From IMG/VR virus record IMGVR_UViG_3300047457_000333, positions 1-26,205 of that record: 26,205 nt of DNA. One strand, written 5' to 3'. The stretch comes from a virus. The position numbers were made by a program, and so were the translations under genes. Positions 11,755 through 23,503 of the stretch are shown in pieces. The first letter of the stretch is position 1. Every line of letters begins with the position of its first letter. The notes under the pieces are model-generated. The model saw only the letters and a list, made by a program, of their open reading frames with translations, was not told where the DNA came from and made no database searches.

Positions 11755-12397
11755 TAACAAACTCCTTAATCATAGGGAAAATAGGTTCAATTGCTTCTGC
11801 ACATGCAAGTGCAATCTCACGGTGTTCTTTTTGTGTTTCAATTCCACTTCTTATTTGTATATAGTGAATCCATGATCGAATGGAACCCTTCATATACATT
11901 CTAGAAACTGTTAGACCTTCTGGAAGTACTGATCGTGCTTGTTCTTTTGCAATACCATTCTCAATAGCCCAGTTATATGCTTCTTTTGCATAATATAGTA
12001 CTTGTTTTTGACAAATCTCCCATCCCTGTTCTAATCGTTGGTCATCTACATCAATACTGTTCTGTCGATTCTTTGCGTCTTGAAGTCTTGCATCTCTATA
12101 CACAAATCCCAAGTCTTTGGTGGGGTCTGCATACCTTTGAGAGAATTCTTGAAATACAAATGAACGGTGTCTAAGGATTTGTCTTGCAATATCTCTAGTA
12201 GTTTCAATTTCTAGAGTTGCATCTACCATTTCAAGTGGAGACCAATGTTTATGTTTAATAAGATAGTTGACTAACTTCTCAGCAGTATCATGATTATTCT
12301 GATTTGACGGATTAGATACCCTAGCAACATAAGCAATCTGTTCAAGGAGATTCAATCCAGATTCTTCCATAGTGTGACTAAACAATTTTACATTCAT
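11747..12397 (-). CDS. thyX: FAD-dependent thymidylate synthase ThyX
   Basis: This is a 216-residue flavin-dependent thymidylate synthase that makes dTMP from dUMP with FAD and methylene-tetrahydrofolate. The ThyX signature is present as RHRSFVFQEFSQRY (R76, H77, R78 ... S86, R88). A second conserved area is SVLPEGL (about 159-165) before the RSWIHYIQIR helix. The length is normal for the family. I use the ATG at 12397, which overlaps the primase stop as ATGA; the TTG at 12409 in the longer frame is unlikely. A consensus promoter at 12547-12575 inside the primase gene may drive it with mazG and nrd. Confidence 0.93.
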   Translation of the reverse strand: MNVKLFSHTMEESGLNLLEQIAYVARVSNPSNQNNHDTAEKLVNYLIKHKHWSPLEMVDATLEIETTRDIARQILRHRSFVFQEFSQRYADPTKDLGFVYRDARLQDAKNRQNSIDVDDQRLEQGWEICQKQVLYYAKEAYNWAIENGIAKEQARSVLPEGLTVSRMYMKGSIRSWIHYIQIRSGIETQKEHREIALACAEAIEPIFPMIKEFVNG

Positions 12398-13395
12398 ACT
12401 TTTTTCCAATTAATAAATTCCATCTTTGCTCTTAAATTCACAAATGTATTCTTTTCAATTATATCTTTTATCTCATCTACACTAAATCCCTCAAGTATCA
12501 TATCGTTAATGTCTTTAGACTCTATCATCTCAGGCCAGATCACTACATTATAATGGTCTTCGATGGCTTTGTCAAGCACTTTTACAATTTCTTTGTTTCT
12601 TGGTTCATTATCAAAGACTAAGACGATGTTCTTCTTATCGAGAATATCACCGGCACGAACTAGATTGCTGTCGGCAGTTGCGATTGCATTGTCAAGAAAA
12701 AGAGAATCAATCGGACCTTCTACGACATAGATTTTTTTGTTTTCATCTATTTTATCTATGCCAAAGAACTTTGCATTCTCATCTGACATTTTCACTGTTA
12801 TATATCGCATACTAGAATTGGTTAGTGTTCTTCCTTGTAATGCAATAAGGTTCTTGTCTTTATCAAAGAATGGTATCACCAACCTCTTGTCGTTCTCTAT
12901 GAGGTTCTTTTTCTCTATACCAAGGTCATCTACAAACTTTTTAAAATCTGGTGCATAATAGAGATTGTGGAACGTTTCTTCTGGTATCTTTCTATCCAGA
13001 CAATATTTTTTTGCAAGATGTGTATCCGAAAGTTCTGCAACAGTCTTTAGTTTAAGATGCTTTTTGAACACAGGTTTAGAATCAGTAAAATCAATTGGTG
13101 TTTCTACTGGTTCTGGGTTTTCGTTTCTGAATCTTTCTACAGAATATTCTTTCAAAAGAGAAGGTTGTACTCTTTCTAGAAAATTATAGAAATTATGAGA
13201 AGCACCACAATTATGGCATCTATAAAAGTAATTATCTTTTCTTTTAAAGATATAACCACGGCACTTGGTCTTATCTTTTTGTGAATCACCACAGATAGGA
13301 CACCTAAAGTTGTATAGGTCTGTTTTTCTTTCCGTGAATAATTTAAGCTTGGGGGATATCAATAGAAGATACTTTCTATCAATGAAAACACTCAT
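12394..13395 (-). CDS. 61: DNA primase, T4 gp61-like
   Basis: A 333-residue DnaG-type primase that makes RNA primers on the lagging strand with the replicative helicase. The N-terminal zinc ribbon has C32/C35 (CPICGD) and C60/C63 (CHNCG). The TOPRIM catalytic domain begins near 220, with E226 in YVVEGPIDS and an acidic pair D262/E264 in VLVFDNE. The length matches T4 gp61 (342). The helicase partner is not in the window. It starts about 40 bases after a promoter-like site (13439-13467), and its 3' half contains a perfect promoter for thyX. It belongs to the same replication cluster as RNase H. Confidence 0.88.
   Translation of the reverse strand: MSVFIDRKYLLLISPKLKLFTERKTDLYNFRCPICGDSQKDKTKCRGYIFKRKDNYFYRCHNCGASHNFYNFLERVQPSLLKEYSVERFRNENPEPVETPIDFTDSKPVFKKHLKLKTVAELSDTHLAKKYCLDRKIPEETFHNLYYAPDFKKFVDDLGIEKKNLIENDKRLVIPFFDKDKNLIALQGRTLTNSSMRYITVKMSDENAKFFGIDKIDENKKIYVVEGPIDSLFLDNAIATADSNLVRAGDILDKKNIVLVFDNEPRNKEIVKVLDKAIEDHYNVVIWPEMIESKDINDMILEGFSVDEIKDIIEKNTFVNLRAKMEFINWKKV
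12547..12575 (-). promoter_or_regulatory. Perfect consensus sigma70 promoter inside primase gene
   Basis: TTGACA (12570-12575), 17 bases, TATAAT (12547-12552) on the minus strand, within codons for VLDKAIEDHYNV. It lies 150 bases before the thyX ATG, so it could express thyX-mazG-nrdA-nuclease-nrdB without the primase. It shares the CTTGACA context with three other promoters here, which makes chance less likely. Confidence 0.75.
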
Positions 13396-14804: not shown

Positions 14805-15659
14805 TTATCCTAGAAGTTTCTTTAGTGTTGCAGGACCAGCAATACCGTCAGCAGAAAGACCATGTTCTTCTTGCCATGCCATTAGGGCACGTTGACTACC
14901 TGGACCAAAGATACCATCTGCATCAACACCAAGCGCTTCTTGAACCTTCTTTGCAAGTTCCCCGCGAGAACCCAACTTAACTAGTTGTGAACCACCAGTA
15001 GATGCGGCCTTTTCTTCTGCAACAACATGAGATTCTGATTCTCCACCAGCAAGGATTGCTTTATTATGTACATAATGCTTCTTACGATCTTCTAGACCAA
15101 TAGTACCACCATTAATCTTCTTAGTCATAAGAGTGATATCATCATTATCACAGACTGAATTCAATCCGTTAGCTTTCCAGAACCAACATGCAGATTCAAT
15201 TGCACCTTGAAGTGTTTCTGTATACTCTACAGTTTCATCAAGAGTTTTCTCAATAGCCTTTGCGAAACGAGAATAGTTATCTTTACCAGTTAGCTGAATC
15301 GCACCACGACCACGGAACTTCCACCCTTCCCCAGATGCGGTATCACCATTACCCATACGATTTGCATAAACTACGTTAGCAATCTTTTCTGGATTACGAG
15401 CATAACCAGTTGCGTCACGACCAGCATTCTTGAAATACTTAGGGAAAATCTTGTTTAGTCCGTCAGCAGAATAATTCAGATTTTCTTTAAGAACAGTGAA
15501 GTCAACAGATTCATGGCCACATTGTGCAAGGAATCCAGCAACACGATTTACAGTGTTGATTTCATACTTTGGGAATACTGCATTGAATGCTTCTAGTAAA
15601 GCAGCAATATTCTTATTTCTTGGCAACATTTTAGCCAATGATGATTCAGTTAAATTCAT
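14805..15659 (-). CDS. Endolysin: GH19-like lysozyme plus peptidoglycan-binding domain
   Basis: This is a 284-residue muralytic enzyme. Residues about 1-200 are a glycoside hydrolase 19/chitinase-like lysozyme domain. The catalytic Glu is E50 in CGHESVDF and the second acid is E59 in KENLNYSAD; the conserved block GWKFRGRGAIQLTGKDNY (112-129) follows. A linker (AEEKAASTGG) leads to a C-terminal PG-binding type 1 repeat (about 222-284) with the DADGIFGPGS and SADGIAGPAT pair. There is no signal peptide, so a holin is needed for release. The ATG overlaps the upstream small gene as ATGA, with a good AAGGAG ribosome site. It heads the lysis cassette. Confidence 0.93.
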   Translation of the reverse strand: MNLTESSLAKMLPRNKNIAALLEAFNAVFPKYEINTVNRVAGFLAQCGHESVDFTVLKENLNYSADGLNKIFPKYFKNAGRDATGYARNPEKIANVVYANRMGNGDTASGEGWKFRGRGAIQLTGKDNYSRFAKAIEKTLDETVEYTETLQGAIESACWFWKANGLNSVCDNDDITLMTKKINGGTIGLEDRKKHYVHNKAILAGGESESHVVAEEKAASTGGSQLVKLGSRGELAKKVQEALGVDADGIFGPGSQRALMAWQEEHGLSADGIAGPATLKKLLG

Positions 15660-15847
15660 ATTTGTTTTCTCCTTCTGATTGAACCCATTACAGGACTTTT
15701 TCTTCTTCTTTTCATGTCTACGCCAGGTTCACCGCCTTTTCCCCCGCTACCAGCAATTGCACCACTACCAACTACGTTGGTTGGGCCAGCGGCAATTGCT
15801 CCGCCACCCATTCCATCTTCATTTATAAATTGTTTGAATGATTTCAT
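15656..15847 (-). CDS. Gly-rich, basic protein with capsid-targeting-like leader
   Basis: The start is the ATG at 15847 (TAATG overlap with the upstream stop; 63 residues). It begins MKSFKQFINE, which aligns with the T4 capsid-targeting sequence MKTYQEFIAE. I8-N9-E10 would be a gp21-type cleavage site. The remainder is glycine/alanine-rich (GGGAIAAGP, GSGAIAGSGGKGG) and ends in arginine/lysine clusters (MKRRRKSP, SIRRRKQI). A small basic internal head protein that binds DNA is the best reading. It sits directly before the endolysin gene. Unrecognised otherwise. Confidence 0.65.
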   Translation of the reverse strand: MKSFKQFINEDGMGGGAIAAGPTNVVGSGAIAGSGGKGGEPGVDMKRRRKSPVMGSIRRRKQI

Positions 15848-16464
15848 TAGCAATTCCACTTTCTCAGTGATAGTGCCTTTCTGGTTGGTCTACCCTTTTC
15901 ATCCTTCATTGGACCAGGCATACCACCCATTCTTGCACAAAATGACTTTCTACGATTTGCCGCTTTGCTTCCTTTCTTCAACTTTGAAGGAGGAGTAGTT
16001 ACTGCCATACTCAACTTAGAACCGGGATTCTCTCTACGATAGGATGCAATACCCTTTCTATTGAGACCACCTTCTGGATTCTTGCCTTCCTTACGTTGCC
16101 ATGCAGCAGACTTTTCATCTAACTGAGTTTCTTCTGGAACACAATTAGGAACTTTTCTACCACCTTTCATTTTCATACCAACGGCAGTATATCCTTTCCA
16201 ACAAGCCTTCTTTAATGGACCTGATGATTTCTTCACATCTTCATCTAAATTAGAATGTAAGTAATCACATACTGTTGACATATAATCTTTAGCTAGAGTT
16301 ATTTTACTTTGAACCCATTCTGGTAGATTTGTCGTATCTTCTAGCATATCAGTGACATGTTTGCAATGCATTATAATTACTTCCATATCATTTTTGGCCA
16401 TTTCACCTTCATAATCATATTCTTTTGCGTTTATAGATTCTACAAAATGTTTGAATGTTTTCAT
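15847..16464 (-). CDS. DUF6321-like protein with capsid-targeting-like leader
   Basis: A 205-residue modular protein. It starts MKTFKHFVES, similar to the T4 CTS with E9 one residue early. A helical module follows (NLPEWVQSKITLAKDYMS, about 46-63), then ACWKGYTAVGMKMKGG (about 87-102). After QLDE (113-116) comes a highly basic conserved block (KSAAWQRKEGKNPEGGLN, KGIASYRRENPGSK, SFCARMGGMPGPMKDEKGRP), which I associate with DUF6321, a domain found widely in phage proteins of unknown role. QLDE before the basic block looks like another prohead-protease site. The start overlaps the preceding stop (ATGA). Likely an internal virion protein; function unknown. Confidence 0.75.
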   Translation of the reverse strand: MKTFKHFVESINAKEYDYEGEMAKNDMEVIIMHCKHVTDMLEDTTNLPEWVQSKITLAKDYMSTVCDYLHSNLDEDVKKSSGPLKKACWKGYTAVGMKMKGGRKVPNCVPEETQLDEKSAAWQRKEGKNPEGGLNRKGIASYRRENPGSKLSMAVTTPPSKLKKGSKAANRRKSFCARMGGMPGPMKDEKGRPTRKALSLRKWNC

Positions 16465-16847
16465 ATGCTTAACAGTATCTCTGCAATATTAGGTTCTAGT
16501 GGAATATCAGAGGTATAAATGGTTTTTCCTTTGATACCTATAACTTCATCCGGCATAATATCAAGATATTCTAGAAATGTTTTTAGAATATCATAATCAC
16601 GTTCATCAGTTTTATAAAATAAAATTCTTGCGGTTGGAACCGGACCAAAAACATTATTCAATAAAATGATATGATTAAGTATTAATCGTTCTTTTAGTAC
16701 TTTGGATATTTTATACTTGCGAAATAATCTTTTCAAATATTTTGTACGTTTAATATCACTTTCGAATTCTGACATAATGCAATGAGGTGCGTTATAACAC
16801 TTCATTGCATATATCAGGAAATTATCTTCAGTTAAATTACTAAACAT
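16461..16847 (-). CDS. Conserved T4-like phage protein, DUF7207-like
   Basis: A 128-residue helical protein starting MFSNLTEDNFLIYAMKCY, with RTKYLKRLFRKYK and an LILNHIILLNNVFG helix, then LKTFLEYLDIMPDEV. This family is conserved in cyanophage-like T4 relatives, usually beside structural genes; I link it loosely to DUF7207, function unknown. There is no Shine-Dalgarno: the ATG lies only seven bases after a terminator hairpin and T-tract, so its expression may depend on read-through or on an unusual mechanism. The gene stop overlaps the next start (ATGA). Confidence 0.75.
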   Translation of the reverse strand: MFSNLTEDNFLIYAMKCYNAPHCIMSEFESDIKRTKYLKRLFRKYKISKVLKERLILNHIILLNNVFGPVPTARILFYKTDERDYDILKTFLEYLDIMPDEVIGIKGKTIYTSDIPLEPNIAEILLSI

Positions 16848-16853
16848 AACAAT

Positions 16854-16876
16854 AAAAGGGGGACAGTATCCCCCCT
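16854..16876 (-). terminator. Rho-independent terminator hairpin
   Basis: On the minus strand a perfect GGGGGA / TCCCCC stem around a five-base loop (TACTG), then TTTTATTG. It begins a few bases after the stop codon at 16880 of the virion protein gene. The stem is strong (five G:C pairs) but the T-tract is short, so some read-through into the next gene is expected. Confidence 0.85.
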
Positions 16877-16879
16877 ATA

Positions 16880-17464
16880 TTATACACCAGAGTAGTAGGT
16901 GTTTGTGTTACTTGTTCTACCAGAATTGGTATTAGCAACGGCAGTGTTAGAAAGTGCAACAAGTGTTTCTACCTGTACACGACCTGCACGACCACCAGTA
17001 CCAGTAGTAACATGTTGCCAACCGATGTGTGCAGTAGAGGTATTTGCAAACCCTACAGTGTTGGCTAGACGAGTAGTTGAAACAAGAACGGTATCACCAA
17101 AATAAGTATTGGCGGTGTCTTGATTGTAAAGAATGTTAGTACCAAAGTCAAGCGATGTGCCTGAAGCTATTGTTCCCATTACACTATTAGCAAGTCTAAC
17201 AGTATTAACACTTACAGATACAACATAGTTGTTGGAAGTGAAGAATTCCTGTTCACCAGTAATAGATGCATTGGTTCCATAGATGTACATTCCAGCCGCG
17301 ATACCAATATTGGCAGCAGTGTTAGCACCAACTCCAACAAATACAATAGTGTTACCTGATGTAGTGGTGTTAGCAGTTACTAGGCTAGCAAATGGTCTAA
17401 CCTGTCTTTCTTGTGACCAATGTGGCTTATCATAAATTGAATCGGTATTACCCCAAGATGGCAT
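16880..17464 (-). CDS. Putative virion structural protein
   Basis: A 194-residue Thr/Asn/Val/Gly-rich, beta-strand-rich protein starting MPSWGNTDSIYDKPHWSQ and ending in the conserved block AHIGWQHVTTGTGGRAGRV. Both ends recur in proteins of T4-like marine and cyanophages that are annotated as structural. Composition and strand pattern suit a virion surface or decoration protein. It has its own late promoter (17498-17505), an AGGAG ribosome site seven bases before the ATG and a terminator just after its stop, so it is a single-gene, probably highly expressed late unit. Confidence 0.75.
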   Translation of the reverse strand: MPSWGNTDSIYDKPHWSQERQVRPFASLVTANTTTSGNTIVFVGVGANTAANIGIAAGMYIYGTNASITGEQEFFTSNNYVVSVSVNTVRLANSVMGTIASGTSLDFGTNILYNQDTANTYFGDTVLVSTTRLANTVGFANTSTAHIGWQHVTTGTGGRAGRVQVETLVALSNTAVANTNSGRTSNTNTYYSGV

Positions 17465-17497
17465 TTTATTTCTCCTAAAACTTTAAGTTTATATGTC

Positions 17498-17505
17498 TAT
17501 TTATA
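17498..17505 (-). promoter_or_regulatory. T4-type late promoter TATAAATA
   Basis: The minus strand reads TATAAATAGACATATAAAC, containing the T4 late consensus TATAAATA with no -35 element needed. It lies 33 bases before the ATG at 17464, in the only gap on that side. The 23536 promoter repeats TATAAATAGAC and a TATA nearby at nearly the same distance from its gene. Confidence 0.8.
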
Positions 17506-17510
17506 GATTA

Positions 17511-18770
17511 TTATTTCTTGTCCAGATTGGCTTTCTTTGCAAAATCTGGATGAACGTTTGGTTTCTTCATCATCGGATCAAGTTCAATTACATCTCTTCC
17601 TTGACCTGTTAATGTTTTCCCACCATAGATTATGCCTGCTGCTTTGGGGTCATTAGGACTTGAATCTACTTTTGGTTTCTTTCCATAAGTCGCGACTGAC
17701 TTATTTTCTTTTTCCCAATCATACATGTCTTCTTTCACAGTCTTCTTCTTCAAAGATTTTACCATCTTAGCAGCTTTAGACTCTTTTTGATTCTTTTCTG
17801 TATCATCTGAACAAGTTACTTCTGGTCCAGTGGTTTGAGTTGCCGCATAAGAATCTTGATAGGTATCTTCTGGGAAGAATTGTTCTTTCAATTTAGCAAC
17901 AAAATCATAATCATCCATAGTAAGAGTACCCTTATTGCGAATATCAATAAGTTTCTCTACTACACGATGAAGTTGTGCATCAGACTTAACATCTTCACGA
18001 GCGAGTTCAAGAACACGAATTAACAATGGAATATCCATAGTAATCGTATCCTTTTTATCAGTTTCTTCGTTTTGTTGACCGATATGTAAACTTCTATGCA
18101 GATCAGGACCAGCAATACGAATAGGTTTAGATTTTATAAATGCCTTATCTAAAGTCTTCTGTCTCTTTAATGTAGGAGAAGCTTTCCATGTAACTTGTTC
18201 AGTGTTAGGAACAGGCAATCTACCACCACGCATATGCTGTTGCTTCCATTTATTAAAGTTTCCAGTTTTAGAAGCAGCAATCTTAGAGATTTTACTTGCA
18301 GTTTTAGGATTAATCCCTCTGGTCTTTAAGTAAGCATTTAGAAGTTCATCCTCTGTGATAGGTTCAACTTCTTCTTTTTGTGTCTTTTTCTTTTGTTGGT
18401 CATCCCAAACTTTATCAGTTTTTACATTATATTCTTTTTTACCGGGACCAATATCGGCTACTTTAAAACCAATAGGTTTATCAGTTGACACTTTCACTTT
18501 AATTTTTTCATCTACTTGTTCAACTTCTTCAGAGAACTTGCGGTCTTGTTTCCATTTTGCAAAAGAACCACTCTTTGCATGAGAAATTTTAGTCTCTTGA
18601 CTAACTCTCGTTGGATCAATTCCTTTAAATTTCAAATAGTTATCCAATTCACCGGCTTCGTTTACATTAGACTTAACTGACCAAGGATCATTGGGGTCGG
18701 TGCCAAAGGTGGGTCTTTCTTTGACCCCACCCTTGACGATTGCCATCAATCTTTCTACTTTCTTATCCAT
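17511..18770 (-). CDS. Modular internal head/prohead protein candidate with direct repeats
   Basis: This is a 419-residue highly charged protein. Two related modules occur: about 42-75 (LDNYLKFKGIDPTRVS ... GSFAKWKQ) and about 143-176 (LLNAYLKTRGINPKTAS ... GNFNKWKQ). Between and after them are acidic elements EEVEQVDE (81-88) and EPITEDE (136-142), which look like cleavage sites of the T4 prohead protease type (hydrophobic-x-Glu). The C-terminus is basic. No enzymatic motif is seen. Probably an internal head or scaffold-type protein cut during maturation (inference). The start overlaps the previous gene (TAATG). Confidence 0.65.
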   Translation of the reverse strand: MDKKVERLMAIVKGGVKERPTFGTDPNDPWSVKSNVNEAGELDNYLKFKGIDPTRVSQETKISHAKSGSFAKWKQDRKFSEEVEQVDEKIKVKVSTDKPIGFKVADIGPGKKEYNVKTDKVWDDQQKKKTQKEEVEPITEDELLNAYLKTRGINPKTASKISKIAASKTGNFNKWKQQHMRGGRLPVPNTEQVTWKASPTLKRQKTLDKAFIKSKPIRIAGPDLHRSLHIGQQNEETDKKDTITMDIPLLIRVLELAREDVKSDAQLHRVVEKLIDIRNKGTLTMDDYDFVAKLKEQFFPEDTYQDSYAATQTTGPEVTCSDDTEKNQKESKAAKMVKSLKKKTVKEDMYDWEKENKSVATYGKKPKVDSSPNDPKAAGIIYGGKTLTGQGRDVIELDPMMKKPNVHPDFAKKANLDKK

Positions 18771-20578
18771 TATTTTGGACCTGGAGTAAATTTAATCTTA
18801 GTTGATTTACTATCTGCACCCGGACCAACATCATCATCCTTTCCACCCTTAATTCTACCCTTTAAAGTATCGGTAGTTTTGATGCGTGGATCAATTTCTT
18901 CTGATGTTGCACCAGCCTTACCCAACATTTCATTCTTTACTTTAGAAAGGGCGGCACGAGCAATAGTTTTAGCTCTTTCTAATGGAGATGTTGGAGATTC
19001 GTTAGTTGGATTAGTTGCAAAGGTTTCTAATCCATAATCTGAACCTGGTCCCTTTGCTTCATTTAGTTCATGGCGATGCATATCTTCCCAGTGAGAAGCA
19101 GCAGCCTTTCTATCAGCAGTAGAGAACATCTTGTGCCATGGTTTACCATCACCATGTTCCTTTGCATAAGATTGAGCAGCACGATCAGCATGGTATGCCC
19201 ATAACTTCTTTGCTTTTTCTGGATGATACTCACCCTTCTTCATCTTCTTACGAAGGTTATTCATAATAGGAGTATGACTAGAATGATAAAGATGTGGATG
19301 ATTATCTGCATGAAGTACTAGTTCCTTAGCGGCATGAGACATGTCACCATAACTTTCAGTTACCTGTTCAACTTCTTCGTTTGATAATTTCTTTTTGGCG
19401 ATATCAATACCGCTCTTTCTCTTACCAAACTTTTCAGCATGTTTCATAAACTGTTTGGTATCGCGAGATTTACCACGACTAGCAGCACTTCCAGCAAGAG
19501 CATATGATTTATCAGCAGACTTAGATGCTTTACCAACATAAGAAGTTAATGTGTCTTTCGAAAGTTCATCAATCTGTTCAATATCTTCAGCAACTCTCTT
19601 AGCAGATTTGGTAGCAGTAGCATATGCAACTTCCTTCCATCTCTTACCATAACGTGCCTTTAGTCCCTTCTTGTCCTTCTTCATGGACTTTACAATTTCT
19701 TCCTTCTTCTTAGATTCAGCAGGAGTAAGGGTCTTTTCAATAACTACTTCTTCGGTTGCCTTTACTTTAGGTTCTGGTAAACCAAATTTCTTGTCACCAT
19801 ATGCCTTTTTCAGTGCAAGACTACGACCACCTTCGCGTTTCTTAATTTCAGATGGTGAACTATATTCTGGTTTGGTCTTACGAATATATCTCTGAACCAA
19901 ATCTCTAGATAATTCATCAATCTGTTCTGCATTTTCCTTACGAAGTTTCTTGAAGTCAGCAGCAGTAAGTTTACCCTTTGGTTTAGCAACATCAAGTTTA
20001 TGTTGAGCGCCTTTCAGACCTTTACCAGCAGCATTAGCAGCGGCAGAAGCAGCAGAAGATTTACTTCTATTTGACTTCTTCCAAGGACCATCAGCAATAT
20101 CTGTCCACTTGTCTTCAGCAACAGTTTCTTCTTTATAAATTCTATAAGTTCCTAATCCTGTTTTTTCTATTTTTCCACCGTGTTTTTTAGCAGCATCGTT
20201 GGCATGTGTTGCTTTATCAAATGTTGCAAGCATATGTCCTTTTCCATCGCCAGATTTGTGTTCTGTATCATGTAAATATAATCTATCTTCTTGGCCATGT
20301 CTGGACTTTTGAAAAACGGGTTTATTGACAGATGTATGGTATCCATATGAACCGAAAGATTCATCAACTTCCTTTGGAGTCTTCTTTGCTAATTTACCGA
20401 TTTCCTTATCTGGATCAGTTTTCTTGTCTGCTTCGATTGGTTTTGCCTTCATGCGACGAAGTTCTGCATCCGCACGTTTTACATCATCATCTTCATCGTC
20501 ATCATCCCATCTTTCTGAGATGATCTTTTCGATTTCTTCAGCAACTGAATCTTTCTTTGTAAATTTACTATTAAACAT
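18770..20578 (-). CDS. Large modular internal head protein candidate
   Basis: This is a 602-residue, lysine-rich, disordered-looking protein with repeated modules. EQIDELSRDLVQRYIRK (about 218-234) and EQIDELSKDTLTSYVGK (about 334-350) are close copies. GLKARYGKRWKEVAYATATK (about 305-324) is a basic block that recurs in T4-like internal or head proteins. Further EQVTE (404-408) and EVDES (70-74) elements fit prohead-protease sites. Residues 24-33 are an aspartate run. There is no enzyme motif. Coupled to the upstream gene by an eight-base overlap with a GGAAAG ribosome site, and on the late transcript from 23536. Likely a packaged or core protein that is cut into fragments (inference). Confidence 0.7.
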   Translation of the reverse strand: MFNSKFTKKDSVAEEIEKIISERWDDDDEDDDVKRADAELRRMKAKPIEADKKTDPDKEIGKLAKKTPKEVDESFGSYGYHTSVNKPVFQKSRHGQEDRLYLHDTEHKSGDGKGHMLATFDKATHANDAAKKHGGKIEKTGLGTYRIYKEETVAEDKWTDIADGPWKKSNRSKSSAASAAANAAGKGLKGAQHKLDVAKPKGKLTAADFKKLRKENAEQIDELSRDLVQRYIRKTKPEYSSPSEIKKREGGRSLALKKAYGDKKFGLPEPKVKATEEVVIEKTLTPAESKKKEEIVKSMKKDKKGLKARYGKRWKEVAYATATKSAKRVAEDIEQIDELSKDTLTSYVGKASKSADKSYALAGSAASRGKSRDTKQFMKHAEKFGKRKSGIDIAKKKLSNEEVEQVTESYGDMSHAAKELVLHADNHPHLYHSSHTPIMNNLRKKMKKGEYHPEKAKKLWAYHADRAAQSYAKEHGDGKPWHKMFSTADRKAAASHWEDMHRHELNEAKGPGSDYGLETFATNPTNESPTSPLERAKTIARAALSKVKNEMLGKAGATSEEIDPRIKTTDTLKGRIKGGKDDDVGPGADSKSTKIKFTPGPK

Positions 20579-22337
20579 TTTTCTTTCCTTTCTTAGTTAT
20601 TTTTATACCAATGTTTTTATCCTGATCTTTATAGGTTTGGAGTGGTTCTTTATTGGTTGCCCCACATAGTGTACCACCTACCCCCATATCCACAGCACCC
20701 GGATCGTCAATCGCTTCTCTAACTCTTTTTAGAAGTGATTTGGTATCTGTTTGCTCTCTATAAGTAACATCACCAAGACCAGACATTGGATATACAGTAC
20801 CTTGTTGTCTAGTATCAAATTCTTGTCCTACTCCAGCAACATTTCTTAATCTTTGATTTACTGTTGGGGAGTCGGTGTATCTTTTCTTACTTTTCGTCTT
20901 CTCTTTGTCTTTTGAGAAGTTGCTTTCTTTTGGTTCTGGGAAAACTTTGAGTTTTGGCCCTTGCTCTTCACTGTACGTTCTGAAGGTGTATGTTTTTTCT
21001 GGGTTCTTTCTCGCAGGAGCATCGCCTTTGATATCGTCCCCCCACCTTGCTTCTCCTGCTCTATTGTCTGGAGTAATGTCTGATGGGCTTGGTGCTCTGA
21101 AGGCTGGGTTATACTTGACCACAGTAGATTTTTGAATTTGTTTAGAATCTTTTTTAGCATCTTCATTTACCTTGAACATATTGTCAAAATTTAGTTTACC
21201 ATGTTTCTTAAACCAGTCATAAGAAAGATAATCAGTAACCTGTTCGTCTAGGAAATTATTTATTGTTTGATAAGTTGTTGTGATATCTTCTTCTATTGAT
21301 TCAATACTACCACTATTGTCGAAGTGAATGAAATAGTTAAACATATTACCAAACATATTTTTATTCTGTTGTGCAGTTTCCCACTTCTCTGCACGAACCG
21401 ACTCTATCATCATACGAGAAAGTTTTTGATTTCTTTCTTGACTTGCTTGATTGGTAGTATCCACAAATACCATCATAGTTTCATACCCAATAGATTCAAG
21501 AACCTGTTTGATATTAGAAATAGATTCTAAATCTTCTGCTGGTCCATTGATGATTAATGGGAGATGATTCTTTAGATATTGACTTTCATACAATCTTTGA
21601 ATCTGAACATAATTGAATTCTTTACATTTAGACTCTGCAATGGCTTCACGGATAATGATATCTTTACCAGAACCGGGACCACCAGTTACAAATATAGCTT
21701 TGGATAAACCGCGATTATAATCTTCATGAAGACCCATTCCTTTACGAACATCATGCATTAATTCATGTGCGTGTTCGTCAGAAACATGATGTGGAACTCC
21801 TTGACGGAATGATGAGAAGTCTTTATTCTTTGCATGTTCTCTCATCTTAGTTCCAGACATACCTTCGGTTCCTTCTGAATCAGGATCACGATGACCCGCA
21901 GAATGAACTTCAATCTTATGGAACTTATAATGACCATGCTTACCTTTAACACCATTATACTTGTGTAGTAGGTGATGCATTTCTTTTACGCGATCTGATC
22001 CAGCAACAACTGTTAGATGTGTATGACCAGATGCGTGTAAATTAGCAGCATGGTGGAGAATAGTAGGATGTTCTTTTGAAGAAGCAACAAATCGAGTGCC
22101 AGGCGAGTATCTCTTTAGATGTTTAACCTTTTCTTCACCAGAAAGAGGATTCTTCTTGCTATCTTGTGAGTGAGATACTACAACATGGTGTGATGCACCT
22201 TGCTTTTCAGCAGTATGTTTAACTTTATCAATGAGTTTTAAATGACCACTGGTGGGTGGGTTCATACGACCGAAAGCTAATACTGCTTTCTTAGCTTTCT
22301 TTTCTTCTTCTGTAATAACGTCTAGGAAACTTTTCAT
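20571..22337 (-). CDS. Cytidylyltransferase-fold / P-loop fusion with CTS-like leader
   Basis: This is a 588-residue protein. Its first ten residues MKSFLDVITE align with the T4 capsid-targeting peptide. Residues about 15-205 form a cytidylyltransferase/NMN adenylyltransferase-like domain: GRMNPPTSGH (T/HxGH, H32) and SGTKMR (161-166, ISSTxxR-like). Residues about 212-370 hold a P-loop domain: GGPGSGKD (219-226) with Asp in place of the usual Ser/Thr after the Lys. The last 200 residues are charged and structural-like (SEEQGPKLKV, GVGGTLCGATNKEP). Domain pairs like this are known in T4-like phages; substrates (NAD precursor, nucleotide or sugar nucleotide) cannot be read. Start overlaps the upstream stop (ATGA). 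Packaging into the head is inference. Confidence 0.75.
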   Translation of the reverse strand: MKSFLDVITEEEKKAKKAVLAFGRMNPPTSGHLKLIDKVKHTAEKQGASHHVVVSHSQDSKKNPLSGEEKVKHLKRYSPGTRFVASSKEHPTILHHAANLHASGHTHLTVVAGSDRVKEMHHLLHKYNGVKGKHGHYKFHKIEVHSAGHRDPDSEGTEGMSGTKMREHAKNKDFSSFRQGVPHHVSDEHAHELMHDVRKGMGLHEDYNRGLSKAIFVTGGPGSGKDIIIREAIAESKCKEFNYVQIQRLYESQYLKNHLPLIINGPAEDLESISNIKQVLESIGYETMMVFVDTTNQASQERNQKLSRMMIESVRAEKWETAQQNKNMFGNMFNYFIHFDNSGSIESIEEDITTTYQTINNFLDEQVTDYLSYDWFKKHGKLNFDNMFKVNEDAKKDSKQIQKSTVVKYNPAFRAPSPSDITPDNRAGEARWGDDIKGDAPARKNPEKTYTFRTYSEEQGPKLKVFPEPKESNFSKDKEKTKSKKRYTDSPTVNQRLRNVAGVGQEFDTRQQGTVYPMSGLGDVTYREQTDTKSLLKRVREAIDDPGAVDMGVGGTLCGATNKEPLQTYKDQDKNIGIKITKKGKKNV

Positions 22338-23503
22338 TTTCTTGCTTTGAGGAGATTGGCCTTACTGAATTCTGCACGATTAACTAACTTGGTTGGTTGT
22401 CCAGCATGATTTACCACAAAACCTTCTGGGTCAGTTTTCTTTCCATCAATATCGTGTTCCAATCCGCCGCTATGTTGATTTAGAACGTTAACTAAAACAT
22501 TCTTCGCTTGTTGTAAATGATTATGCATACCTAAAAGGTTTTCATAATGCTTCTTGTTTGCATTAACATAATTTTCATGCTCAGCATACTGATTCATTTT
22601 TCTACTCTGAGCAGCAGGAGTTTTTAATCCACTTGCTGCTTTTGTATACTTATCTTTCATATGCTGAATGAAACCTTTTACATTAGGTTTCTCATCAGTT
22701 CTTACGGTTTGATTGATATATGTAGCTAAGTGCCCAGCATCACCTTGATGAGGCGAGGTAGCAGAATACATCATAGGATTTTCTTTATGAATCTTTTTAG
22801 CGGCATCAATATGATTTTGGAATTCTGATTGTTGTATTGGATCATAATGTACATGTCTCGTATCATGTTCTGCTGATTGATGCCATACATCAGGATGTTG
22901 TGTAAAATTATGCACATCAGGATATGGATCAGCTTTCATGTTATTAAGAGTATCACCATGATATTGCTGGTGAACAACAACTCCTACCTTTGCTCTTTTA
23001 ATCTTATCTGCTAGATTTCCTTTCGCAGAATATGTGATGGTATTTGGTGTAAAAGAGACACCACGTTTGTTTTCTTGTTTATCATCACCAGAAAACATCA
23101 TATCCCCTTGATATACACCTACCTTTGGTGTAACTTTAGGGAGATGATTAAGTGCATCGTGGAGTTTATCCATCAAACCAGGTGCATGACCATGATTCTT
23201 GAGAATATCTTGATGAGTGTAGTTGATTTTTGGATTCTTGTTGAATGCAGATTTAGATGCAACAAAGAATTTATTGTTCTCTGGATTTCTACCAAAAATG
23301 ATAGAGGGGGAACCATCATATTTCATGGTAAGAGCAGAACTATGTGCGCCACTCTTGATGTGATTATGTGCTTGTTCTAAAGCACCAACTGCATGATCGA
23401 ATCCAGCACTACCATGAAGAAGAGGTCTATCTTCCGCATGGTGAATGTGCTTTAATTTGGATTCGTCTGCTTGCTCTACTAAAAAATAAGAAAATGACTT
23501 CAT
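22334..23503 (-). CDS. Ligase-fold nucleotidyltransferase-like protein (DUF6267-like) with CTS-like leader
   Basis: A 389-residue protein. It starts MKSFSYFLVE, aligned with the T4 capsid-targeting peptide, with E10 as the putative cleavage site. Residues 61-64 are KYDG in TMKYDGSPSIIFG, the KxDG motif I of covalent nucleotidyltransferases (DNA/RNA ligases, capping enzymes). EGFVV at 360-364 resembles motif IV and K372 (PTKLVNRAEF) motif V. The middle is His/Gln-rich. I associate it with DUF6267 of T4-like phages; a ligase or RNA-end activity has not, to my knowledge, been shown. First gene behind the late promoter at 23536, and the start has only a weak ribosome site. Confidence 0.7.
   Translation of the reverse strand: MKSFSYFLVEQADESKLKHIHHAEDRPLLHGSAGFDHAVGALEQAHNHIKSGAHSSALTMKYDGSPSIIFGRNPENNKFFVASKSAFNKNPKINYTHQDILKNHGHAPGLMDKLHDALNHLPKVTPKVGVYQGDMMFSGDDKQENKRGVSFTPNTITYSAKGNLADKIKRAKVGVVVHQQYHGDTLNNMKADPYPDVHNFTQHPDVWHQSAEHDTRHVHYDPIQQSEFQNHIDAAKKIHKENPMMYSATSPHQGDAGHLATYINQTVRTDEKPNVKGFIQHMKDKYTKAASGLKTPAAQSRKMNQYAEHENYVNANKKHYENLLGMHNHLQQAKNVLVNVLNQHSGGLEHDIDGKKTDPEGFVVNHAGQPTKLVNRAEFSKANLLKARK

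What the first reader, a model, noticed from the sequence alone, without database searches (positions are those of the whole stretch)
15656..23503. Four proteins share a T4 capsid-targeting-like leader: a candidate packaged-protein set
Genes starting at 23503, 22337, 16464 and 15847 begin MKSFSYFLVE, MKSFLDVITE, MKTFKHFVES and MKSFKQFINE. The T4 internal proteins IPI-III begin MKTYQEFIAE, cut after E10 by the gp21 prohead protease. Three align exactly with hydrophobic-x-E at 8-10; 16464 has E9. Among the cargo are a ligase-fold protein and a cytidylyltransferase/P-loop fusion, enzymes that would enter the host with the DNA. I know T4 precedents (IPs, Alt) but no description of these as a set.
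Basis: partly seen in the sequence, partly recalled or inferred. Interest (0 to 1): 0.82.

Follow-up and report, generated by a model that had tools for sequence, protein, structure and literature searches.

The report
T4-style head-targeting leaders on packaged cargo
A freshwater-type relative of phage T4 puts the same ten-residue address tag on several unrelated proteins, including an RNA-ligase-like enzyme and an NAD-type nucleotidyltransferase; related phages with the tag carry some of these proteins inside their particles, so the tag probably marks what is loaded with the DNA.

Summary
Confirmed and extended. The leader MK[ST]F..[F/V/L]Φ.E occurs three times in the six-frame translation of the window, each time at a gene start (the fourth protein is a variant, MKTFKHFVES). 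In 160 related loci it begins about 10 unrelated protein clusters. Its conserved columns (4, 7, 8, 10) are those shown by mutation to matter in the T4 capsid-targeting sequence. Relatives encode the S77 prohead protease and a gp23 whose own cut site is LxE. Published virion proteomes give outside support: leader-bearing homologues of the window's cytidylyltransferase/NMNAT protein were detected in virions of S-SM1 (MKKFSAFLNE), S-SCSM1 (MKSFLQFLKE), S-CREM2 (MKNFSSFLTE) and S-SZBM1 (MRFRQFIIE). In S-CREM2 five of five clear leader proteins were detected. DUF6267 has an RNA-ligase-like fold. Beyond the finding, genes between the leader genes encode Lys-rich polyproteins whose modules join at conserved Φ-x-E sites, and the same module can follow either an N-terminal leader or an internal site. 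Not shown: cleavage at residue 10, DUF6267 in virions, ejection into the host. Verdict: a new variant of a known system (T4 CTS/internal proteins).

The parts
22334..23503 (-). DUF6267 protein, 389 aa, RNA-ligase-like nucleotidyltransferase with leader
   Evidence: PF19782 E 1.4e-97; motifs K61-x-D63-G64, G133-D134, E360-G361-x-V363, K372 conserved; model pLDDT 89.9, all 50 listed pdb_via rows are RNA/DNA ligases, best Z 9.3
23474..23503 (-). leader MKSFSYFLVE of the DUF6267 protein
   Evidence: pLDDT < 50 over residues 1-13; only hydrophobic-x-E site in the 389 aa
20571..22337 (-). NMNAT/cytidylyltransferase-like domain + P-loop kinase-like domain + disordered basic tail, 588 aa, with leader
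   Evidence: PF01467 E 7e-7; model and PDB hits; homologue of T4-GC190, detected in cyanophage virions
22308..22337 (-). leader MKSFLDVITE
   Evidence: F4 invariant, E10 and K2 in at least 90% of 33 homologues
18770..20578 (-). Lys-rich polyprotein 1, 602 aa; candidate junctions after residues 22, 73, 155, 222, 281, 338, 408, 507
   Evidence: hydrophobic-x-E at module starts conserved; module gains/losses end at such sites
17511..18770 (-). Lys-rich polyprotein 2, 419 aa, with a duplicated LxxYLKxxGIxP module; candidate junctions after residues 38, 88, 140
   Evidence: 26 of 30 contexts with hydrophobic-x-E at the module start against 0.20 background
16880..17464 (-). possible small virion protein, weakly similar to S-SCSM1 gp95 (annotated tail fiber protein, virion protein)
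   Evidence: phmmer E 0.005; no hydrophobic-x-E site
16461..16847 (-). DUF7207 protein, syntenic in cyanophages; no leader
   Evidence: PF23837 E 2.7e-33; E 7e-26 to S-SM1 SSM1_196
15847..16464 (-). leader variant MKTFKHFVES + YDYEG module + CWKGY module + DUF6321 module, joined at NLDE|D and QLDE|K
   Evidence: PF19846 E 2.9e-23; DUF6321 contexts; similarity to MS-detected S-SZBM1_139, E 1.4e-10
15656..15847 (-). 63-aa leader protein (MKSFKQFINE), Gly-rich with a basic tail, upstream of the gene 61-like primase; gp61.1-like
   Evidence: relatives and T4 gp61.1 resemble the own gp23 mature N-terminal arm
15818..15847 (-). leader MKSFKQFINE
   Evidence: only hydrophobic-x-E site in the protein

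Best explanation
The ten-residue leader is a capsid-targeting and prohead-protease sequence of the T4 CTS type. During head assembly F4 and F7 would dock the precursors into the scaffold core; after the shell closes, the phage's S77 protease would cut after the hydrophobic8-x-E10 site, as it cuts gp23 at LxE, and the cargo would stay in the head with the DNA. Neighbouring polyproteins (18770-20578, 17511-18770, and the tail of 15847-16464) would be cut by the same protease at hydrophobic-x-E junctions into small basic modules. On infection at least part of the cargo (an RNA-ligase-like enzyme, an NMNAT-like/P-loop enzyme, basic peptides that may bind DNA) would enter the cell with the genome. 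Shown: the leader, its column pattern, its transfer between unrelated cargoes, junction conservation, and virion detection of leader-bearing homologues of the NMNAT-like protein. Inferred: docking, cutting at residue 10 and at junctions, ejection, and activity in the host.
For: Three leaders, all at gene starts; 106 against 0.74 for permuted motifs, about 10 unrelated clusters. Conservation at 4, 7, 8, 10 equals the T4 IPIII mutational map (targeting 4 and 7, processing 8 and 10; PMC9026906 section 10). S77 protease in 12 of 15 relatives' records and gp23 LxE sites in 13 of 13 genomes, T4's FLTE|AEIGG included. T4 control finds ipII, ipIII and gp61.1 only. Virion MS: T4-GC190 in S-SM1, whose protein starts MKKFSAFLNE; S-SCSM1 NMNAT starts MKSFLQFLKE; S-SZBM1_140 starts MRFRQFIIE; S-CREM2 gp154, gp14 kinase, gp6 SAM hydrolase, gp13 and gp136 all carry the leader and all were detected (Fisher p 0.0007 with the broad pattern). 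The same DUF6321 module follows MKSFKQFLEE|, MKTLKQFIE|, MITLKEFIVE| at N-termini and KTFGNFMNE|, SFKQYLNE|, KTYDQFMIE|, SFESFVSE| inside longer proteins. Hydrophobic-x-E at module starts: 29/31, 26/30 and 42/76 against 0.22, 0.20 and 0.11 background.
Against: No peptide evidence for cutting at residue 10 or at any junction. The window is a fragment in which no S77 protease was found and no gp23 gene is seen. In cyanophages DUF6267 lacks the leader and S-SZBM1's was not in the virion list. Leader proteins S-SZBM1_191 and _192 and S-SCSM1 gp30 were not detected, and S-SZBM1 alone gives no significant association (p 0.45). The exact leader is not found in HTVC008M, Melnitz, DLP6 and P-HM2, where some orthologues have register-shifted forms. 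P-HM2 has a leaderless copy of the NMNAT family. Depletion of internal hydrophobic-x-E in the DUF6267 clade (0.28 of expected) does not track the leader once S-SM1 (0.26) and S-SZBM1 (0.54) are included.
Confidence: 0.85

Rival explanations
1. The leader targets the proteins to the prohead core, where they act as scaffold; the protease then shreds them and most fragments leave the head (as for T4 gp22, gp67, gp68), so little or nothing is delivered to the host.
For: Polyproteins are Lys/Glu-rich with many hydrophobic-x-E sites; T4 core proteins behave so; some small leader proteins are not seen in virions.
Against: Folded enzymes with leaders are recovered from purified virions; polyprotein-like S-SZBM1_139, S-CREM2 gp160, S-SCSM1 gp89 and gp92 are reported or annotated as virion proteins too; the DUF6267 protein of the window has a single site, at residue 10.
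Confidence: 0.15
2. The leader is an ordinary amphipathic N-terminal helix shared by descent or chance; the enzymes act in the cytoplasm and their presence in virion preparations is carry-over.
For: Look-alike N-termini exist in non-virion proteins (MKNLYEVFDEF, RecA MSFLNDVVKE); the authors of PMC10665884 allow for carry-over in CsCl preparations.
Against: About 10 unrelated clusters share it; positional conservation at 4, 7, 8, 10; enrichment among MS-detected non-structural proteins in S-CREM2; transfer between N-terminal and internal positions before DUF6321.
Confidence: 0.05
3. The leader targets but is not cut in some members (16464, where E is at 9), so the set is mixed: some cargo stays attached to the core or shell. 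This is compatible with the best explanation for the other members.
For: T4 work separates targeting (4, 7) from processing (8, 10); MKTFKHFVES keeps F4 and F7 only; relative L002 has MKTFTKFRES.
Against: F-V-E| is itself a hydrophobic-x-E; relative L072 has MKTFKHFLEE.
Confidence: 0.3

Closest known systems
T4 internal proteins IPI-III with the capsid-targeting sequence (CTS) cut by gp21
   Same: Ten-residue N-terminal leader, same key positions 4, 7, 8, 10, hydrophobic-x-E site; T4 ipII and ipIII are found by the same scan; S77 protease and LxE gp23 site in relatives.
   Different: Cargo includes enzymes and multi-module polyproteins rather than small IPs only; the leader spans about 10 unrelated clusters; CTS-like motifs also occur inside proteins at module junctions.
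T4 Alt (packaged ADP-ribosyltransferase)
   Same: An enzyme carried in the head behind a short propeptide.
   Different: Different enzyme classes: RNA-ligase-like and NMNAT-like/P-loop. Delivery to the host is not shown here.
Cyanophage virion-associated NMNAT/cytidylyltransferase (T4-GC190: S-SM1, S-SCSM1, S-SZBM1, S-CREM2)
   Same: Homologous enzyme family; leader present in these four; detected by MS.
   Different: The parts of the cited papers read here do not connect detection with a leader; the window protein adds a P-loop domain and belongs to a phage without a close relative in the annotated phage collection.
Polyvalent proteins of phages and plasmids (PMC5512222)
   Same: Multi-domain proteins thought to be injected with DNA, some proteolysed during packaging.
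   Different: Here the modules are small, basic and without recognised enzymatic domains, no embedded peptidase was recognised, and junctions match the prohead protease motif.

Membership tests
T4 capsid-targeting sequence (CTS) | about 10-residue N-terminal leader with large hydrophobics at 4 and 7 and hydrophobic8-x-E10 | tested here: met
   met in three of four window proteins, variant in 16464
T4 capsid-targeting sequence (CTS) | directs the protein into the head | tested here: inconclusive
   No targeting assay; homologues with the leader are in virions, three leader proteins were not detected
T4 capsid-targeting sequence (CTS) | cut after E10 by the S77 prohead protease | not testable with these tools
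   Protease and LxE gp23 sites present in relatives; no peptide data on the leader
ATP-dependent RNA/DNA ligase (covalent nucleotidyltransferase) superfamily, for DUF6267 | KxDG motif I, EGxV motif IV, motif V lysine | tested here: met
   K61/D63/G64, E360/G361/V363 and K372 invariant or nearly so in 41 sequences; also in nine phage genomes
ATP-dependent RNA/DNA ligase (covalent nucleotidyltransferase) superfamily, for DUF6267 | nucleotidyltransferase fold | tested here: met
   Foldseek top 3 are DNA ligases at a weak E of about 0.01; all 50 listed pdb_via rows are ligases, best Z 9.3, rmsd 3.7 over 183 residues
ATP-dependent RNA/DNA ligase (covalent nucleotidyltransferase) superfamily, for DUF6267 | ligase activity | not testable with these tools
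   No assay; motif III is divergent (QGD)
NMNAT/cytidylyltransferase-like nucleotidyltransferases | CTP_transf_like fold and HxGH-type motif | tested here: met
   PF01467 over cut-off; GRMNPPTSGH largely conserved; NaMNAT/NMNAT structures among PDB hits
Polyvalent proteins | several recognised enzymatic or effector domains in one polypeptide | tested here: not met
   18770-20578 and 17511-18770 match no Pfam family

The most novel reading that the evidence does not exclude
These phages carry a modular head-cargo system in which CTS/hydrophobic-x-E units work both as N-terminal addresses and as internal junctions, so one polyprotein delivers many small basic modules to the prohead and the protease releases them there. 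One leader-tagged member (the gp61.1-like 63-aa protein) imitates the phage's own gp23 mature N-terminal arm, a feature that T4 gp61.1 shares.
Probability: 0.5. Interest if true: 0.82.

Novelty: new variant of a known kind. Interest (0 to 1): 0.7.

Why it matters
A short readable leader would let anyone predict from sequence which proteins a T4-like aquatic phage packs in its head, and would help settle doubts that enzymes seen in cyanophage virion proteomes (NMNAT, kinase, SAM hydrolase, a Cas9-like nuclease) are contaminants. It names an RNA-ligase-like enzyme and an NMNAT-like enzyme as candidate first-minute host-takeover or counter-defence factors, and offers natural cargo tags and junctions for T4-type protein delivery.

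Tried and rejected
A nucleotide search of annotated phage records found no close relative. Depletion of internal protease sites as independent proof of exposure: strong in the DUF6267 clade but also seen in two leaderless cyanophage proteins and absent from the cytidylyltransferase (1.51 of expected), so not used. Homology of the 63-aa protein to T4 gp61.1 outside the leader: not significant by pairwise score (249 of 1000 shuffles reach it); gene position and the gp23-arm resemblance are the link. Leader-protease co-occurrence: most contigs are fragments too short to be informative, so only consistency is claimed. S-SZBM1 as a fresh test of leader versus virion detection was not significant (p 0.45). 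The 602-aa polyprotein was not folded, because only four relatives share most of its architecture. Literature on DUF6267, DUF6321 and DUF7207: none found.

Full report
Observation. The four ORFs are at the stated places on the minus strand. MK[ST][FYL]..[FLIVM][ILVM].E is found three times in all six frames of the window, each time as the start of a gene; the fourth protein reads MKTFKHFVES. In 160 related viral loci the pattern occurs 106 times; 103 begin frames of 40 aa or more and all of those lie within 40 codons of an upstream stop. 200 permuted orders of the same residue classes average 0.74 hits, though one near-synonymous order reaches 51. After removal of the first 12 residues the leader proteins fall into about 10 unrelated clusters: DUF6267, the NMNAT-like protein, the 63-aa Gly-rich protein, a 104-aa 'NIAGDFNG' protein, DUF6321 proteins and others. 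These loci are related to each other, so the clusters, not the 103 hits, are the better count of evidence.

What the leader looks like. In 55 DUF6267 and 53 NMNAT-like N-termini the conserved columns are 4 (F), 7 (F, or L/I/V), 8 (L/I/V) and 10 (E); 5, 6 and 9 vary more, and most of residues 11-18 form a variable linker before the domain. In a 33-sequence alignment F4 is invariant, and K2 and E10 reach 90%. The T4 IPIII leader was dissected by amber suppression: residues 4 and 7 target, 8 and 10 allow processing (PMC9026906 section 10). A similar scan of the T4 genome returns ipII, ipIII and the uncharacterised gp61.1 only. In the DUF6267 model residues 1-13 have pLDDT below 50 while the whole averages about 90.

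Protease context. The window is a 26-kb virus fragment in which no S77 protease was found, but 12 of 15 relatives' records encode Peptidase S77, and in 13 genomes, T4 included, the gp23 prepeptide ends at an LxE site (T4 FLTE|AEIGG is the known site, from general knowledge). So the motif at the end of the leader is the one this protease lineage uses on its main substrate.

Evidence from virions. Sullivan et al. (PMC3037559 section 26) detected T4-GC190, a putative cytidylyltransferase, in purified S-SM1 virions. That protein begins MKKFSAFLNE, and the window's 588-aa protein belongs to the same family (37% identity over 193 aa to the P-HM2 member). S-SCSM1 NMNAT was detected in virions (PMC9602691) and begins MKSFLQFLKE. 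S-SZBM1_140 was detected (PMC9146016) and begins MRFRQFIIE. In S-CREM2 (PMC10665884 Table 3) the leader proteins in the F4/L4-F7 register are gp6 SAM hydrolase, gp13, gp14 APH-like kinase, gp136 and gp154 cytidylyltransferase; all five were detected. With a broader pattern, 5 of 7 leader proteins against 23 of 188 other non-structural proteins were detected (p 0.0007). The detected Cas9-like gp12 has FASFMAE|A near its N-terminus. The pattern was widened after a first look at S-CREM2, so this p-value is indicative only. S-SZBM1, used fresh, gives one true positive and two undetected leader proteins (p 0.45), and S-SCSM1 gp30 is also not marked as a virion protein. In S-SCSM1 the genes between mazG and primase that match the window's cluster by position (gp89-93, 95, 97) are annotated as virion proteins in the record.

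Cargo. DUF6267 carries K61-x-D-G, E360-G-x-V and K372 across 41 sequences. Its predicted structure finds archaeal DNA ligases first in Foldseek at a weak E of about 0.01; in the second-look aligner all 50 listed entries are RNA or DNA ligases, led by Naegleria RNA ligase (Z 9.3) with T4 Rnl2 at Z 8.1. A divergent RNA-ligase-like enzyme is the best reading. The 588-aa protein has an NMNAT/cytidylyltransferase domain, a P-loop domain resembling adenylate and polynucleotide kinases, and a disordered tail. RNA repair or NAD supply at the start of infection are both plausible and untested.

Polyproteins. Between the leader genes lie two Lys-rich ORFs (18770-20578 and 17511-18770) without Pfam matches. 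Their segments end in acidic hydrophobic-x-E motifs such as EQIDE|L, EQVTE|S and EPITE|D. For modules found in several architectures the hydrophobic-x-E at the module start is conserved: 29 of 31 contexts for KTLTPAE, 26 of 30 for LDNYL and 42 of 76 for DUF6321, against 0.22, 0.20 and 0.11 at random places in the same ORFs; two other modules of the 16464 protein are less clear (YDYEG 7/19, CWKGY 19/35). The window's 602-aa protein differs from relatives by a stretch inserted between KEVDE and the next EQIDE. Most tellingly, the DUF6321 module is found directly behind N-terminal leaders (MKSFKQFLEE|SAAWQRK, MKTLKQFIE|SAAWQRK, MITLKEFIVE|VAAWQRK), behind internal leader-like sequences (KTFGNFMNE|A, SFKQYLNE|V, KTYDQFMIE|V, SFESFVSE|A), behind plain hydrophobic-x-E (QLDE|K in the window), or with none (MAKTPAWQRK). 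The 16464 protein is thus itself a three-module polyprotein behind a variant leader. S-SZBM1_139 and S-CREM2 gp160, detected in virions, share sequence with it.

The 63-aa protein. It lies upstream of the primase gene (12394-13395), as T4 gp61.1, which carries MKTFKEFIKE, lies next to gene 61. In T4, P-HM2, S-CRM01, S-CREM2 and a relative of the window (G006), one protein of the same genome matches the phage's own mature gp23 N-terminal arm far better than any other ORF (scores 69, 101, 99, 95, 59 against 39, 44, 48, 43, 36). Self-matches exceed cross-matches in the matrix for these five. S-SCSM1 gp97, a record-annotated virion protein, shows the same resemblance by eye (GGFTGSSAAEGPTAGYDPLM against GGSADAGPTAGFDPVL of its gp23). 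In T4 and G006 it is the leader protein; in the cyanophages the mimic lacks the leader. DLP6, C48C1, G001, G002, G003, HTVC008M, Melnitz and S-SZBM1 gave none. This is a lead, not part of the main claim.

Verdict. The set is real and is best read as a T4 CTS-type head-cargo system extended to enzymes and polyproteins. Membership in the CTS kind is met on sequence, supported by virion data for homologues, and untested for cleavage. The CTS concept is known and its reuse for varied cargo in T4-like phages has been proposed; the enzyme set, the leader-virion correspondence in cyanophages and the junction use were not found in the papers searched.

Noticed in passing
15656-15847; T4 NC_000866 18966-19130; S-CREM2 gp160; S-CRM01 97341 minus; P-HM2 150774 plus; G006 60743 plus: A protein encoded near gene 61 imitates the same phage's own gp23 mature N-terminal arm (T4 gp61.1: NPENISIGTTSGAVVNKGP against gp23 NATNIAAGQTSGAVTQIGP); T4 gp61.1 also carries a CTS-like leader.
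   Followed up: partly
L260 (S-CREM2 gp12), residues 19-25: A virion-detected Cas9/Csn1-like nuclease has a leader-like FASFMAE|A near its N-terminus.
   Followed up: no
L081, L083, L113; S-SZBM1_191; S-SCSM1 gp30: A family of about 105 aa (MKSFKSFLSESVNISGDFNG...) has the leader in all copies seen but was not reported in two virion proteomes.
   Followed up: no
G004, G005 (114 and 107 kb contigs): DUF6321 occurs without leader in large contigs that show neither S77 protease nor gp23, so the module may be shared with other phage types.
   Followed up: partly
L001:4261-6924: In a close relative the NMNAT-like protein is fused to modules that are in the separate polyprotein gene of the window.
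   Followed up: no
L286 (S-SCSM1 gp93, 69 aa): A small virion-annotated protein has a leader-like motif at its C-terminus (RTFKEFLEYIE).
   Followed up: no
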